From positions 186,001 through 250,000 of the forward strand of contig JAKAGV010000004.1 of NCBI GenBank assembly GCA_021815405.1: a stretch of DNA of 64,000 nucleotides, given 5' to 3'. Position numbers and translations under genes: made by a program. Under the pieces are notes generated by a model. It saw only the letters and a list, made by a program, of their open reading frames with translations, did not search any database and was not told the DNA's origin. This document shows, piece after piece, positions 2,897 through 8,290 of the stretch; positions within the stretch are counted from its first letter, which is position 1, and the number at the start of each line of letters is the position of its first letter. The stretch comes from Bacteroidota bacterium. GTDB lineage: Bacteria; Bacteroidota; Ignavibacteria; Ignavibacteriales; Ignavibacteriaceae.

Positions 2897-3000
2897 TCTA
2901 AAAAGCCTAACATCTTCAATGTCATTTCCGCGGAAGTGGGAATCTTTTCCAAATACTTAACTCTTTAGATTCCCGTTTTCACAAGAATGACCTTTTTAGA
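2897..3000. repeat. Second family of palindromic intergenic repeat
   Basis: A 9-bp terminal inverted repeat (TCTAAAAAG at 2897-2905, CTTTTTAGA at 2992-3000) encloses two arms that are imperfect reverse complements, the left starting GTCATTTCCGCGGAAG and the right ending CACAAGAATGAC. This is the widely seen CCGCGAAAGCGGG type of bacterial repeat. I see no flanking duplication. It is distinct in ends and core from the CTGAAGTTACGC family nearby. Confidence 0.65.
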
Positions 3001-3258
3001 TTGGACTTATAAAATAAAATCGTTCTTTCGAACCTAAATTGATCGAATCTTAAAATGAAATTACTTATTTAACAGAAATAAATAGATCTTTTTAGAATTT
3101 GATTTGTTCTTTTGAAAATTATACTTGTGGATTGCAAATATATCTTGGCAAGTTTATGAATTTACCTTACTATTTTATAATGCCGATTAACAAGAATAAA
3201 ACTCAACCTTGTGACATTTACACATAACTATGTAAGAATTTATTGCAAGTATAAGAGA

Positions 3259-3440
3259 ATTAATCGCAAAAGCCAAAGAATAAAGTGCAAACAAGGTAAA
3301 ATTAATCGCAAAAGCCAAAGAATAAAATGCAAACAAGGTAAAATTAATTGCAAAAGCCCAGGAATAAAGTGCAAACAAGGTAAAATTAATTGCAAAAGCC
3401 CAAGAATAAAGTGCAAACAAGGTAAAATTAATCGCAAAAG
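3259..3440. repeat. 42-bp tandem repeat (minisatellite), about 4.3 copies
   Basis: Four full units start at 3259, 3301, 3343 and 3385, and a partial one at 3427. Each begins ATTAATYGCAAAAGCC and continues through GAATAAARTGCAAACAAGG. Units differ at a few positions only. Because 42 is a multiple of three, reading frames stay open on both strands and give repetitive translations such as KINRKSQRIKCKQG. No convincing start signal precedes these frames, so I treat the array as non-coding. It ends about 130 bp before the gene at 3571. Confidence 0.85.
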
Positions 3441-3570
3441 CGTCAGAATTACAATTAACTATGACAAAATGCCGGTTGAAGGAAGAAAAATTGAAGCCAA
3501 AAGCATCGAAATTGAAATTACCTAATAGTAAATCAAAATACAATGAATTAACTAACAATAGGAGGTTCTT

Positions 3571-4301
3571 ATGTCTTCGCAGCAATCTTTTGCATCAAAA
3601 CTCGGTAAATTCGAAAACGGGAATACCACTTTAAAAGGATTTACAAATTATAATCCAACAAACGTAAAGATTCAAATAAACAGCCTTGTTCAAAAAGATA
3701 CAGATGTAATAGCTTTGAACGACTCAGTTACTGCATCGGAAGAGGTTCTTAAAAAACTGCAGAAAGAGAGGAAGTTTTTGGCTTACTCTTTTAAAGGCGG
3801 AAATGATAACAACATTCAGGGTAATATGAAAGCAATTGAATATAATTTAAGATCAGAGCTTGGTGCAAGCAGCCCTGAATACTTAAAGGTAAAGTCGATT
3901 AATCAAAAAATTCAGCCGCCATCGGAAAAGAAAAAACTTCCTAAAGAAGGTGAGACTCCAAAAAAGAGTAATTCAAAAAGCGAAAAAACATATCAGTCGC
4001 TTGTCGGTTTTGGAAATGATGTATGCACAATAATTACAAACCTTGGAACAAATTATAATCCTTCAAATCAAAATATAACAGTTGAAAATTTTAAGGCACA
4101 GGTTGATCGTTTAAAAGAATTGAATGCACAAATAACAACAGCAGAAGGAGATATTCCACAGCAGTAAAGAATCGTGAAAAAGCTTATGACGGCGAAGATG
4201 GAATTTCTTCACTTATAACAACTGTAAAGGATTATCTTGCAAGTCTTGAAGGCGGCAAGAAAAATCCCAATTATGTTGCGTATGCAAATGCAGTGAAATA
4301 A
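3571..4301 (+). pseudogene. Two-repeat protein of unknown function, frameshifted in repeat 2
   Basis: The gene starts at an ATG behind a strong AGGAGG site. The first frame runs 198 residues to a TAA at 4165-4167. The reading continues in the -1 frame from about 4158 to a TAA at 4299-4301 with protein-like sequence. The two frames together make two internal repeats of about 90-95 residues. Each opens with TNYNP(T/S)N, passes a helical linker, reaches a K(E/N)R(K/E)..AY motif, and ends in a (S/N)P(E/N)Y signature. Repeat 1 is intact. Repeat 2 is split, its first half in the upstream frame and its second half (from AVKNREKAYDGEDG) in the other. So a one-base loss near 4155-4165 is likely, or a sequencing error. 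No signal peptide, and no function known to me. Confidence 0.7.
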
Positions 4302-5030
4302 GGAAATAGTAATTCAACAAAGTTTTTTTTATTAATAAGGTAATAAGGTAAATATTGAGAGAAGTTGGAAGTGCTATTAAGGTTTAATAAAAACTTTAAG
4401 GTTTGTGTTTATAAAATATTATGTGTGAAATATTATTTACCATACAATGCAGAATCTAAAATGTAAATAAACCTTAATAGCAAAGGAATCCGAAACCAAG
4501 GAAATAGTAATTCAACAAAGTTTTTTTTATTAATAAGGTAATAAGGTCAAATTAAGTTTTGGAGAAATTTATTCTATTAAGGTTTTGTAATAAAATTAAG
4601 GTAGAGTTTTATTCAATTGAAGAAAATAAGTATTAAACGATGGCAAGCAAAATCTTAAATATGAAAATAACCTTAATAGCAAAGGAATCCGAAACCAAGG
4701 AAATAGTAATTCAACAAAGTTTTTTTTAATTAATAACTGAAGTTACGCAATTGTCATGCTGAACTTGTTTCAGCATCTAAAAACAGCTTAAAAATAAAGA
4801 TTCCGAAACAAGTTCGGAATGACAAATGGATCATTTTATTCATTTTGCGTAACTTCAGTTAATAAGGTAATAAGGTCAAATTAAGTTTTGGAGAAATTTA
4901 TTCTATTAAGGTTTTGTAATAAAATTAAGGTAGAGTTTTATTCAATTGAAGAAAATAAGTATTAAACGATGGCAAGCAAAACCTTAAATATGAAAATAAC
5001 CTTAATAGCAAAGGAATCCGAAACCAAGGA
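4300..5030 (+). repeat. About 199-bp direct tandem array with inverted-repeat cores
   Basis: The marker AAGGAAATAGTAATTCAAC starts at 4300, 4498 and 4697, and its first part (AAGGAAAT) recurs at 5026; after removing the inserted element the spacing is 198-200 bp each time. Each unit carries two TAAGGTAA-type direct steps and then an inverted-repeat core. In unit 1 the core is TGCTATTAAGGTTTA (4372-4386) against TAAACCTTAATAGCA (4468-4482). In units 2 and 3 it is CTATTAAGGTT at 4574 and 4903 against AACCTTAATAG at 4669 and 4998. Units 2 and 3 are nearly identical to each other; unit 1 has a different core interior. The array begins at the stop codon of the preceding gene and ends before the transposase gene. 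Confidence 0.85.
4730..4865. mobile_element. MITE-like element, copy 2, inserted in the tandem array
   Basis: The element is 4737-4858 (122 bp) between TTAATAA heptamers at 4730-4736 and 4859-4865. Its ends are a perfect inverted repeat (CTGAAGTTACGCAA and TTGCGTAACTTCAG). The neighbouring array unit at about 4528-4547 shows the same sequence with a single TTAATAA and no insertion. That directly gives the empty site and confirms the 7-bp duplication. Non-coding, with two-arm palindromic interior as in copy 3. Confidence 0.9.
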
Positions 5031-5067
5031 AATGACCTTATTAGCTTATTTAAAGGTAAAATAAAAA

Positions 5068-5507
5068 ATGAAAATTCAATATTATAATTTATATACACAT
5101 TTCATTTTTTCAACCTTAAATAGAACGCCTGCGATTATAGAAGAGAACAGACAAAGGATTGAAAAATACATTACCGGAATTGTAAACAATAATGCGTCAA
5201 AATTATATTCGATATTTGCTAATCCTGAACATGTTCACTTTATTGTGTCCCGTTCGCCAAAAATATCGGAAGAGACGTTAGCGATAATTGTAGCATCAAG
5301 TTCAGAGAAATTTATCAATGAAAATAAATTATGTCTTGGAAAGTTTAGATGGCAGGACTCGGCATCTGCATTTTCCGTGTCTAAATCAGAAGTAGATAAA
5401 GTATGCATATTAAATCAGCCGAACCATCATAAGAGAGTAACATTTGCTGAAGAATATGAAAATTCATGAAACATTATCAAATGACCTTGAATAAGGTAAT
5501 AAGGTAA
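5068..5507 (+). pseudogene. Degenerate IS200-like / RAYT (Y1) transposase
   Basis: The open frame is 133 residues (to 5469). Domain features of the Y1 HUH transposase family are visible: an N-terminal LYTHFIFST strand, the HUH metal motif HVHFIV near residues 56-61, the GKFRWQD segment, and a C-terminal NQPNHHKR.TF.EEY motif. The catalytic tyrosine normally found just before I.NQ..HH appears as cysteine here (KVCILNQ). After EEYE the frame is broken; the expected tail KFMKHYQMTLNK is readable in the -1 frame, ending at 5505-5507. Loss of the nucleophile and the frameshift both argue for inactivity. It sits between copies of the array repeat, as a REP-associated transposase would. Confidence 0.8.
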
Positions 5508-5637
5508 ATTTTGAGAGAGGTTGGAAGTGCTATTAAGATTTAATAAAAACTTTAAGGTTTGTCTTTAAAAAATATTATGTGTGAAATATTATTTACCATG
5601 CAATGCGAACCTAAAATGTAAATAAACCTTAATAGCA
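5493..5637 (+). repeat. Isolated copy of the array unit downstream of the transposase gene
   Basis: The stretch matches unit 1 of the array (4340-4482) almost base for base, including the doubled TAAGGTAA step and the inverted pair TGCTATTAAGATTTA (5528-5542) and TAAACCTTAATAGCA (5623-5637). Thus the transposase gene is bracketed by copies in the same orientation. Confidence 0.85.
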
Positions 5638-5763
5638 AGAATAATCAGAGCCTAAAGAAGCAACCTTATTAAATTCTATAGGTGAATGGTGATTGGATTA
5701 AACGTTTTTCATATAAAATAATATACAATTAAAATCATTTTTTTTATAATTTTCGGAGTTAGT

Positions 5764-6006
5764 ATGGACAACGAAGAAAAAACACAAAGTAATTACCCGG
5801 AAGAAAAAGAAAAGAAGCGTGCTTATCCGGTACCAAATAATAAAGGCGGAGTAGCCAGCGGTGTTTACGGTTTAGCTTTTATTGGCGCCGCAGTTTATTA
5901 TATAGGTCATGCAGCCACTTTTTGGATGGGCGTATTAGGTTTTATAAAAGCACTGGTATGGCCGGCAATACTTGTATATAATGTAATGAAATTCTTAAAG
6001 ATGTAA
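5764..6006 (+). CDS. Small membrane protein of unknown function
   Basis: An 80-residue protein begins at an ATG with GGAG eight bases upstream. The first 30 residues are highly charged (many E and K). The rest is hydrophobic and forms two likely membrane segments, about residues 36-52 and 54-75, joined through a GHAATFWMG turn. No family recognised. Start signal and composition suggest a genuine gene rather than chance frame. It follows the repeat region and precedes an outer-membrane-type protein. Confidence 0.6.
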   Translation: MDNEEKTQSNYPEEKEKKRAYPVPNNKGGVASGVYGLAFIGAAVYYIGHAATFWMGVLGFIKALVWPAILVYNVMKFLKM

Positions 6007-6087
6007 TTTGTTACAATAACTCAAAAATACAAGACTCAAGTTGTAACAGTTCACTTTAACAATCTAATATAATTTTAGGGAGGTACT

Positions 6088-6720
6088 ATGAAAACTATGC
6101 TTTTCATTTCTGCGGTTATTCTAATTATGGTCTCAAACTTATATCCGCAGAATAAAATGTCGATCCAACTGAGCGGGGGTATTATATCACCGGTTAATGC
6201 TCAGCAAGGCTTATCCGGTTTGGTTCAATTCAACTATTCTACTTCAAAGAACAATTCTGTTTATGCATCCTTATTTACTTCATCATGGGATTTTAATAGA
6301 ATCAATTTTAATGAAGATAATGTACCGCTGCCGATTAAATCCCACGATGAAGAAAATCATATTCTAAATTCAATATATATCGGAGATAGGATTATATTTA
6401 ACCGCAATAAGTTTTTTAATGCTTATGTTGACCTTGAATTAGGATATACTCATCTTAATTACTTGCATGTCTTTTTGGAAAGGCAGGTTAATCCAGACGG
6501 GTCAATTCAATATTTGCCCAATTACGCTTTATCAAACGAAGTACATGAAAGCATGTTAGGTGCAGGCGCCGGGGTGGGAATACAACATCATATGGTCGGC
6601 AGATTTGATCTTATGCTAAATATAAAGCTGAATACATTTAATGATTTCAGCAGCGGAATATTTAATTTCCAAAGGACTTATTTAGTTTATATGTTTGGAT
6701 TCGGATATAATATAAACTAA
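6088..6720 (+). CDS. Exported protein, probably a small outer-membrane beta-barrel
   Basis: A 210-residue protein with a strong GGGAGG site six bases before the ATG. Residues 1-21 (ending in SNLYPQ) form a Sec signal peptide. The mature part alternates polar and hydrophobic residues in strand-like runs, with glycine- and aromatic-rich segments (YVDLELGYTHLNY, GAGAGVGIQHH) and ends in a strand finishing VYMFGFGYNIN, as beta-barrels do. The specific family and ligand are not recognisable. It is followed directly by MITE copy 3. Confidence 0.7.
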   Translation: MKTMLFISAVILIMVSNLYPQNKMSIQLSGGIISPVNAQQGLSGLVQFNYSTSKNNSVYASLFTSSWDFNRINFNEDNVPLPIKSHDEENHILNSIYIGDRIIFNRNKFFNAYVDLELGYTHLNYLHVFLERQVNPDGSIQYLPNYALSNEVHESMLGAGAGVGIQHHMVGRFDLMLNIKLNTFNDFSSGIFNFQRTYLVYMFGFGYNIN

Positions 6721-6725
6721 AAGAC

Positions 6726-6861
6726 TTAATTACTGAAGTTGCGCAATTGTCATGCTGAACTTGTTTTAGCATCTAAAAACAGCCTAAAGATAAAGATTCC
6801 GAAACTAATTTGGAATGACAAATTAACCATTTCTTCCATTTTGCGTAACTTCAGTTAATTA
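6726..6861. mobile_element. MITE-like element, copy 3
   Basis: The element is 6733-6854 (122 bp) flanked by TTAATTA at 6726-6732 and 6855-6861. Ends are CTGAAGTTGCGCAA and TTGCGTAACTTCAG, with one mismatch in the terminal inverted repeat. It is the same length as copy 2 and about 90% alike by eye. It carries more arm mutations (GAAACTAATTTGGAAT on the right arm), so it is probably older. It inserted just after the stop codon of the barrel gene. Confidence 0.88.
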
Positions 6862-7154
6862 TTTTTGTGGAAATTGAAATAGAAAAAAATATAATTTAAG
6901 AAGGTTGAGATACTGGCTGAATTACAGCCTCTCGACCTTTGCATTATTTATATTAGGATTCCTTACCCAGTAATAAAGATTAAAAGTTACAGATTGGCTA
7001 AAATAATTAAGGATTTTAACCATGAATAAATATATTGAAAGAAATACAAACTGAAATGTTTTGGCGTATTTGTAAGGAGGCAATATATTACTATGAGGAA
7101 AAAGAATATTTGGAGTTAAACTAAGCAATATTAGAAAAGTGAAGAGAAATAGAG

Positions 7155-7228
7155 TGCGCCTGCAGGGATTCGAACCCCGAACCTTCTGATCCGTAGTCAG
7201 ATGCTCTATCCAATTAAGCTACAGGCGC
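7155..7228 (-). tRNA. tRNA-Arg (anticodon ACG)
   Basis: On the minus strand it folds as acceptor GCGCCTG/CAGGCGC, D stem GCTT/GAGC, anticodon stem TCTGA/TCAGA with loop CTACGGA (anticodon ACG), and T arm CGGGG TTCGAAT CCCTG. The discriminator is A at 7155 and CCA is not encoded. The A34 of this tRNA is the expected substrate of TadA (1026-1508). Confidence 0.96.
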
Positions 7229-7408
7229 AAAAGAACGCGTGCAAATATAAAGAAGGCGGGAAAATTTTCCAATCTTTGGAGAAGTAATATTCAAATTAAA
7301 GCAATTAAATATTTAGAGGAAGTAACAATTCAGTTCCGGTTGCATTTCCACATTAAAGAGTTTATTTTTTGCCATCATTTTTAATCAATTATCCTTAAGG
7401 AGTCAGTA

Positions 7409-8290
7409 ATGTTTACAGGTGTTGGAACAGCACTAATAACACCGTTTGATAAAGATTTAAATGTCGATTATAAAGCTTTAAGAAAAATATGCAAGCATCA
7501 AGTTGAAGGTAAGGTTGATGCAATAATTGTTCTGGGCACAACCGGCGAAGCTGCTGTTATAAATGTTGAAGAACGCAAGAAAATTACTGAAACTATACTT
7601 GAAGAAATTGACGGGAAAGCAAAAATAATTTTAGGCACCGGTACCAACGATACAAGAAAAGTTGTTGAGCTAAACAAAATTGCAGAAGAACAAAAAGCAG
7701 ACGGCGTTTTGATTGTTAACCCGTATTATAACAAAGGAACTCAGGACAGCATTGTAGAACATTACAAATACATCTCTGAAAGAACATCACTCCCAATTAT
7801 TCTTTATAACGTTCCTTCCAGGACTGGAATGAATATGCTGCCAGAAACTATTGTAAAAGTTTCTGATGCTTGTAAAAATGTTGTTGGAGTAAAAGAAGCT
7901 TGTGGAAATATTTCTCAGATTGCGCATCTATTCTCAATCAAACAAGATAACCTTTCCATATTTTCAGGCAATGATGACCAGACTTTGCCGATTATGGCTT
8001 TGGGAGGTGCGGGTATCATTTCAGTATTCTCAAATTCATATCCGAAAGAACTGAAGAAACTTACTAATGCAATATTTGGAAATGATTATAAATCGGCTCA
8101 AACATTAAGCAATAAGTATCTAAGCATGATGAATATATTATTTATAGAGACAAGTCCATCACCAATAAAATATGTTATGCACAAGCTTGGACTTTGCGAG
8201 AACATATTAAGGCTTCCATTAGCACCTGTTTCAAAGAAAGCTGAAGCTCTTCTTGATAATGCAATTGAGAATTTTTCTAAATTAAATTGA
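7409..8290 (+). CDS. dapA: 4-hydroxy-tetrahydrodipicolinate synthase
   Basis: It condenses pyruvate with aspartate semialdehyde, the first committed step to diaminopimelate (DAP) and lysine. The 293-residue TIM barrel shows the GTTGE motif (43-47), Tyr133 and the Schiff-base Lys162 in VVGVKEA, at the positions expected from the E. coli enzyme. An AAGGAG site precedes the ATG. It opens the DAP operon and its stop touches the start region of dapB. Confidence 0.97.
   Translation: MFTGVGTALITPFDKDLNVDYKALRKICKHQVEGKVDAIIVLGTTGEAAVINVEERKKITETILEEIDGKAKIILGTGTNDTRKVVELNKIAEEQKADGVLIVNPYYNKGTQDSIVEHYKYISERTSLPIILYNVPSRTGMNMLPETIVKVSDACKNVVGVKEACGNISQIAHLFSIKQDNLSIFSGNDDQTLPIMALGGAGIISVFSNSYPKELKKLTNAIFGNDYKSAQTLSNKYLSMMNILFIETSPSPIKYVMHKLGLCENILRLPLAPVSKKAEALLDNAIENFSKLN

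What the first reader, a model, noticed from the sequence alone, without database searches (positions are those of the whole stretch)
4300..5637. Tandem 199-bp palindromic units around a RAYT-like gene: candidate REP system
Three direct units plus one isolated unit downstream of the transposase gene, each with an inverted GCTATTAAGG...CCTTAATAGC core, flank an IS200/RAYT-type gene in the same orientation. RAYTs are known to cleave and mobilise REP palindromes, but here the units are long (cores about 105-111 bp) and tandem. They begin exactly at the stop of an unnamed repeat protein. A conserved linkage of this repeat protein, array and RAYT in other genomes would be a new mobile or structural system.
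Basis: partly seen in the sequence, partly recalled or inferred. Interest (0 to 1): 0.6.

Follow-up and report, generated by a model that had tools for sequence, protein, structure and literature searches.

The report
Transposase gene with AAGGTT-box inverted ends
The palindromic repeats beside a broken jumping-gene enzyme are local copies of a little-described kind of mobile DNA whose ends are long mirror-image runs of AAGGTT boxes instead of the small hairpins that such enzymes are known to recognise.

Summary
The repeats are real: three tandem units and one isolated unit around an IS200-like (Y1) transposase gene. In relatives of this transposase (65-80% identical; mostly Bacteroidota, Ignavibacteriota, Calditrichota) the gene sits in one frame: AACCTTAGTA-N~24-AACCTTATTACCTTATT on the left, the mirror image AATAAGGTAATAAGGTT-N~24-TACTAAGGTT on the right (both in place in 63 of 73 testable loci). 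The window's GCTATTAAGG is the second box. One end has no hairpin of its own, but the two ends can pair; more distant Y1 genes of the same bacterial family mostly carry short hairpins (17 of 24). Ends are also dispersed, mostly as inverted pairs. So this is a Y1 element with terminal inverted repeats and REPIN-like derivatives, not a canonical hairpin REP system. The window copy looks dead (catalytic Tyr deleted, C-terminus frameshifted). The 199-bp tandem fits duplication at an 8-bp microhomology that overlaps a stop codon. The upstream protein is not part of it: its seven other loci lack both ends and transposase, and a congener has the two neighbouring genes side by side. Closest known: TIRtrons/TIRYTs (other transposase subclass, other repeats) and TnpA-Y1 subclass 1.2 (described as generally without terminal structures).

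The parts
4300..4307 (+). Octamer AAGGAAAT at the joint between host DNA and unit 1; repeated at 4498, 4697 and 5026. Proposed joint of the tandem duplication; overlaps a stop codon at 4299-4301
4334..4486 (+). Unit 1: right-type end a-b (4334-4384) ... left-type box b' (around 4472-4481); outer box a' missing
4532..4685 (+). Unit 2: a-b (4532-4584) ... b' (around 4671-4680); outer box a' missing
4737..4858 (.). MITE inserted in the linker before unit 3, between direct repeats TTAATAA (4730-4736, 4859-4865)
4861..5055 (+). Unit 3: complete a-b (4861-4913) ... b'-a' (4998-5050); its b'-a' is the left end of the transposase element
5068..5469 (+). Y1 (HUH/Tyr) transposase gene, probably dead: Lys-Tyr with the catalytic Tyr deleted, C-terminus frameshifted
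5490..5676 (+). Unit 4: a-b (5490-5536, right end of the transposase element) ... b'-a' (5625-5671, a' decayed)

Best explanation
The locus is a decayed copy of a Y1 (HUH/tyrosine) transposase element bounded by long terminal inverted repeats made of AAGGTT boxes, together with REPIN-like derivatives. Frame: b' - ~24 nt - a' - transposase - a - ~24 nt - b, with a = AATAAGGTAATAAGGTT and b = TACTAAGGTT, and in many copies a further box AATAAGGTTTT outside b. Shown: the frame is conserved around the clade; one end has no local hairpin while left and right ends can pair; ends occur elsewhere mostly as inverted pairs; genomes with a clade gene are much richer in ends; the window transposase lacks its catalytic Tyr. 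Inferred: an intact enzyme binds the boxes at their fixed spacing, in duplex DNA or on annealed single-stranded ends, nicks with its Tyr, and moves both the transposase element and pairs of ends. Inferred for the window: a unit-transposase-unit element lay between the 3571 and 5764 genes; recombination or slippage between two AAGGAAAT octamers multiplied the upstream unit; a core was exchanged between units 1 and 4 (or unit 1 kept the older core and units 2 and 3 were replaced), with joints in boxes a and b'; a MITE then entered the linker before unit 3.
For: Right and left ends: 64 of 80 and 64 of 80 loci match both boxes, 53 on both sides; 63 of 73 loci with enough flank have both ends in place; 293 profile hits in 170 kb near the genes against 9 in 276 kb beyond. 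Single ends mean z +0.4 to +0.6, joined ends -7.4. Hairpins near 17 of 24 outgroup genes against 2 of 50 clade genes. The clade is one branch with 100/100 support. Exact a-b pattern 116 times in 15 of 80 genomes, reversed control 3 times. Five or more ends in 9 of 12 genomes with a full-length clade gene and in 6 of 152 without. Of 60 dispersed places 49 are inverted pairs. Tyr in 78 of 78 other clade rows, missing in the window. Neighbouring genes directly adjacent in a congener. Octamers at all joints.
Against: No movement was observed; element borders and a target-site rule were not found. Ten of 73 loci lack one or both ends in the expected place. 22 of 34 genomes with ends have no full-length clade gene. 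Units 2 and 4 of the window fold no better than shuffles. The exact a-b pattern is absent from the window's own genome. In the congener the short interval could also be a deletion.
Confidence: 0.78

Rival explanations
1. A canonical REPtron: the transposase recognises short REP hairpins and the units are ordinary REPs or REPINs that happen to be long.
For: Same protein superfamily; palindromic units in inverted pairs and clusters beside the gene; two of eight clade members touch the REP-transposase model; outgroup genes of the same bacterial family mostly have hairpins.
Against: Single ends have no hairpin (mean z +0.4 to +0.6, 64 per side); 2 of 50 clade loci have a flank with local-fold z below -2; the conserved boxes cannot pair within one end.
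Confidence: 0.1
2. The units are regulatory or structural palindromes (for example terminators or protein-binding sites) that were never moved by the transposase, which is a chance neighbour.
For: Many genomes keep ends without the gene (22 of 34); units lie between genes; six copies in G060 share sequence outside the unit and may carry a promoter.
Against: The boxes stand at fixed places on both sides of the gene in 63 of 73 loci of several phyla; gene-deleted copies between ends (G078); enrichment of ends in genomes with the gene.
Confidence: 0.08
3. A three-part system of the 3571 protein, the array and the transposase.
For: Adjacency in the window only.
Against: The protein was found in 7 of 80 family genomes including the own one; its seven other loci (four of them weak, 25-30% identity) show no end (best 7.1 bits) and no transposase; of the seven other genomes with a close transposase only G010 has the protein, on other contigs; the congener's locus lacks the element.
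Confidence: 0.02

Closest known systems
[quoted passage not shown]
   Same: Y1 transposase genes flanked by long terminal inverted repeats instead of REP hairpins; repeats also found as single, dimeric or grouped copies in some genomes
   Different: Their shared motif is GGGGWSAS, and 20 of 26 examples fall in subclass 2.1 (passage of PMC6006769); here the boxes are AAGGTT iterons, the protein has the subclass 1.2 Y motif, and the bacteria are mainly of the Bacteroidota-Ignavibacteriota-Calditrichota kind. The sequences in their figures were not available to me
TnpA-Y1 subclass 1.2 (PMC6006769: abstract, passages and section 18 seen)
   Same: Y motif Y---Q--HH; short protein; Bacteroidetes among the hosts; few gene copies per genome
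   Different: Described as generally without typical terminal structures and listed with no REP; here a clade with that motif has conserved inverted ends and dispersed copies, and outgroup genes with the same motif mostly have hairpins. HUH motif EH[VL]H in the clade against DH[IV]H in the paper's table
REPINs / REPtrons of TnpA-REP (RAYT) genes (search listing of PMC3116915; passages of PMC6006769 and PMC3733652)
   Same: Dispersed inverted pairs and clusters of an end-like repeat, tied to a single-copy Y1 gene, with orphan families
   Different: No tetranucleotide-plus-hairpin at each end; pairs are 150-200 nt long with fixed ~24-nt spacers
IS200/IS605 insertion sequences (knowledge of the family, and passages of PMC6006769)
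   Same: HUH and Tyr residues; best NCBIfam model is IS200/IS605 transposase; solved chains 2xm3, 2xma, 2f4f match weakly (E 2e-4 to 9e-4)
   Different: Those have subterminal hairpins and no terminal inverted repeats; here the reverse

Membership tests
Y1/HUH transposase superfamily | HUH motif and catalytic Tyr in a Y1_Tnp domain | tested here: met
   PF01797 52.4 bits; H, H and Tyr in 78 of 78 other clade rows; the window copy has both H but lacks the Tyr
IS200/IS605 insertion sequence | Subterminal hairpins recognised in single strands, no terminal inverted repeats | tested here: not met
   No local folding of ends; inverted ends in place in 63 of 73 loci
[quoted passage not shown]
   Hairpin part not met. 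GTAG does occur in many b' boxes by eye, without a hairpin
TIRtron / TIRYT | Y1 gene flanked by long terminal inverted repeats | tested here: met
TIRtron / TIRYT | Descent from the described TIRYT proteins (mostly subclass 2.1, Y motif YIELNP or alike) | tested here: inconclusive
   Y motif is YILNQxxHH as in subclass 1.2; no tree with the published TIRYT proteins was built
TnpA-Y1 subclass 1.2 | Y---Q--HH motif | tested here: met
TnpA-Y1 subclass 1.2 | Subclass HMM / C-terminal domain of the paper | not tested
   the paper's profiles were not available
REPIN | Dispersed inverted pairs of the repeat that flanks the gene | tested here: met
   49 of 60 fetched places are inverted pairs, 11 single
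Mobile element | Observed excision, insertion or presence/absence of single copies | tested here: inconclusive
   One congener has the neighbouring genes side by side without the element; direction of change not known

The most novel reading that the evidence does not exclude
One lineage of Y1 transposases gave up recognition of small hairpins, which sister lineages in the same bacteria still carry, and instead recognises non-palindromic ends of iterated AAGGTT boxes at fixed spacing, in duplex DNA or as one long stem formed by the two ends: a Y1 element with classical-looking terminal inverted repeats, spread over several phyla together with its own REPIN-like families.
Probability: 0.4. Interest if true: 0.7.

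Novelty: new variant of a known kind. Interest (0 to 1): 0.52.

Why it matters
Y1 transposases are the textbook case of recognition of hairpins in single-stranded DNA. A clade that keeps the catalytic residues but has no hairpin at its ends, beside sister genes that mostly have them, is a natural experiment on how such recognition changes; six positions separate the two groups nearly cleanly. It also supplies conserved flanking repeats for proteins with the motif of a published subclass described as generally lacking them.

Tried and rejected
Own-genome search with the whole array was swamped by the MITE and was repeated with unit 4 alone. DNA search of unit 2 in 13 genus genomes gave outside the own genome only weak matches of 18-56 bases (best E 0.003): the cores are not conserved in letters, only the boxes. 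A local-alignment test for inverted repeats between upstream and downstream flanks was weak in this AT-rich DNA (clade median 41 against 32 for mismatched pairs) and used only 9 of 22 outgroup loci because of a strict motif filter; profile and folding tests replaced it. Rfam at gathering threshold in 3000-7500: only the tRNA at 7155-7228. Plasmids: 2 records, at most 43% identity. The idea that AAGGAAAT is a target duplication was set aside because the letters between the octamers do not begin or end with boxes. No structure prediction was run.

Limits of the counts. The 80 loci are the best 80 of 228 relatives and were found with two peptide patterns typical of the clade. So ends at the genes themselves are found partly by construction: that 12 of 12 genomes with a full-length gene have ends (p = 1e-9) is nearly circular, and the count of five or more ends (9 of 12 against 6 of 152, Fisher p = 5e-9; without the own genome 8 of 11, p = 4e-8; ten or more 5 of 12 against 5 of 152, p = 2e-4) is the fairer one, though arrays at the gene add to it. 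In one search the p of 2e-6 leaves out the own genome, an eighth with a close gene, where the exact pattern is absent. Counts are capped at 35 scored candidates per genome. The limit of 258 bits for a full-length clade gene was set after seeing the gap (next: 164, a fragment, and 152). Genomes are related, so p-values overstate. One search used 50 clade loci drawn from those with enough flank, and 24 outgroup loci; one of these (L095) is really a broken gene of the clade with a misplaced reading frame, kept in the count. 'hairpin' is a label for outgroup rows. My note says 4 control matches; the table shows 3.

Full report
What is there. The window is G000:C14:186001-250000 of a 4.97-Mb genome in 31 contigs. 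Between a host gene opening at 3571 and a small gene at 5764 lie three tandem units, a Y1 transposase gene and a fourth unit. The gene product matches PF01797 with 52.4 bits.

The transposase is broken. Aligned with seven relatives of 72-80% identity, the window protein lacks two residues, Lys-Tyr, in KVCKYILNQ and ends early; downstream letters resemble the relatives' C-terminus in another frame (by eye). The Tyr is present in 78 of 78 other clade rows and 23 of 23 outgroup rows; the two His of the HUH motif are present in all, the window included.

A conserved frame. The flanks of relatives show the same series of boxes. In 80 relatives from named genomes (the best 80 of 228), 64 right and 64 left ends match a (at most 4 of 17 mismatches) and b (at most 2 of 10), and 53 loci do so on both sides; single-letter shuffles reach 4 mismatches for a once in 158 and 2 for b in 8 of 152. 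A profile of the ends (cut at 11 bits) has a hit within 900 bp of the gene in 80 of 80 loci; 293 hits lie in the 170 kb near genes and 9 in the 276 kb beyond. As these loci made the profile, this tests position, not independent discovery. With at least 200 bp on both sides, 63 of 73 loci have both ends in place, 64 the left and 69 the right one. The exceptions are L172, L173, L175, L178, L187, L191, L204, L218, L228 and L233; most of them have ends nearby in another order.

What the ends are. Box a is AATAAGGTAATAAGGTT, box b TACTAAGGTT. The stretch between them varies freely in letters but is 21-26 nt long in 56 of 64 right ends and 57 of 64 left ends. A third box like AATAAGGTTTT follows b in many copies (by eye). 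The AAGG motifs of one end lie on one strand, so one end cannot fold on them: mean z +0.4 to +0.6 on either strand, 64 ends per side; left and right ends together form a stem, mean z -7.4, 53 loci.

Contrast with other Y1 genes. Y1 genes of 37-46% identity to the window protein in the same bacterial family, mostly with the same Y---Q--HH motif, often carry short hairpins: 17 of 24 loci have a flank with local-fold z below -2, against 2 of 50 in the clade (Mann-Whitney p = 2e-8). Examples are seen (CCCGCTTCGGGGG) and, in the own genome, around L041 (GCATCACGAAGTGATGC, AACTACGAAGTAGTT). Seven of the 24 have no such hairpin signal. The clade is one side of a branch with 100/100 support and length 1.61 in a tree of 102 rows; the bootstrap had not fully settled.

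Dispersal. An exact a-b pattern occurs 116 times in 15 of 80 genomes of the family and its reversed control 3 times in 3 genomes (some a boxes count twice). The 7 other genomes with a close transposase are among the 15; the own genome is not. A sequence-only model of the end finds ends in 34 of 164 genomes of the order; 12 genomes have a full-length clade gene, all among the 34, which is nearly circular because ends sit at the gene. Five or more ends are found in 9 of these 12 and in 6 of the other 152 (p = 5e-9 ignoring kinship). The six are G006, G008, G022, G063, G119 and G153; G063 has a gene remnant with five stops and at least 35 ends. Of 60 fetched places, 32 show a-b...b'-a' pairs, 17 b'-a'...a-b pairs and 11 single ends. 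In G078 a b'-a'...a-b copy retains letters of the end of the transposase gene between its ends (by eye), which marks it as a gene-deleted copy. Six copies in G060 align over their whole length while part of them differ outside. The own genome has a complete pair at C3:17071-17258; whether a transposase lies near it on C3 was answered only through the family search, which lists none on that contig.

History of the window locus. In the congener G010 the 3571 homologue (49% identical) is followed after 137 bp by the 5764 homologue (58%), with no end in between. In the window the interval is 1,462 bp. The octamer AAGGAAAT stands at the joint with host DNA (4300), at both unit joints (4498, 4697) and on the element side (5026). 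A single unit bounded by two octamers was therefore probably multiplied by recombination or slippage between them. This explains the 199-bp period, the missing a' of units 1 and 2, and the start at the stop codon. Units 1 and 4 share their core, whereas units 1 and 2 share mainly the flanks; the joints fall in a and b'. Gene conversion and exchange made by an enzyme cannot be told apart here.

The upstream protein. It was found in 7 of 80 genomes including the own. The three close homologues are open over 248-251 aa, and the window frame is shifted near 4160. None of its seven other loci shows an end (best 7.1 bits) or a transposase within about 1.5 kb.

Mechanism. Shown: linkage, geometry, lack of hairpins, dispersal, loss of the Tyr in this copy. 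Inferred: that intact members act on the boxes and move the pairs. The fixed a-b spacing with free letters suggests two protein contacts at a set distance; pairing of the two ends in single strands would also be possible. Sequence alone does not decide.

Comparison with the literature. TIRtrons and TIRYTs (PMC3733652; section 16 and passages seen) are the closest known organisation; their figures were not available to me. Of 26 TIRYT examples 20 belong to subclass 2.1 (passage of PMC6006769), while this clade has the Y motif of subclass 1.2, described as generally without typical terminal structures (section 18). Nine searches of the held library (RAYT with REPIN; REP-associated tyrosine transposase with Bacteroidetes; Y1 transposase with terminal inverted repeats and IS200; TIRYT; transposase with TAAGGTAATAAGGT; REPtron; TnpAREP with inverted repeats; Ignavibacteri with IS200; AACCTTATTACCTTATT) listed no paper whose title or abstract start describes these ends. 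The library holds open-licence papers only and most listed papers were not opened, so this is no proof of absence.

Noticed in passing
4737-4858 and about 6733-6858: A 122-bp MITE with ends CTGAAGTTACGCAA/TTGCGTAACTTCAG; two copies here (90% alike) and 39 further places in the genome at 87% identity or more. The copy at 4737 has direct repeats TTAATAA on both sides. Its transposase was not sought.
   Followed up: partly
about 2461-2583, and L308 about 1270-1435: A second, similar-looking inverted-repeat element (ACTCACGTTACGCACATGTCATGCTGAACTTGATTCAGC...), beside the dispersed pair of ends on C3 as well.
   Followed up: no
3258-3441: A 42-bp tandem repeat, 4.4 copies, 95% matches, just upstream of the 3571 gene; open in one frame as a 14-residue repeat.
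   Followed up: no
L041 (G000:C19, around 164766-165110): Another Y1 gene of the same genome surrounded by tandem units of about 164 bp with short palindromes such as GCATCACGAAGTGATGC and AACTACGAAGTAGTTCAACAA, a hairpin-type REP system.
   Followed up: partly
4160-4170: The 3571 gene is frameshifted relative to homologues of about 250 aa.
   Followed up: partly
L310-L316, L320 (G134): Hairpin-like repeats (TTCACCACTTCGTGG... and alike) sit inside or beside several units of this genome, as if one repeat family had entered another.
   Followed up: no
L269, L271-L274, L279 (G060): Six copies of one unit family share GATAAAATTATTTT just outside a', followed by diverging letters with ATG close by in several; possibly a promoter carried by the unit.
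   Followed up: no
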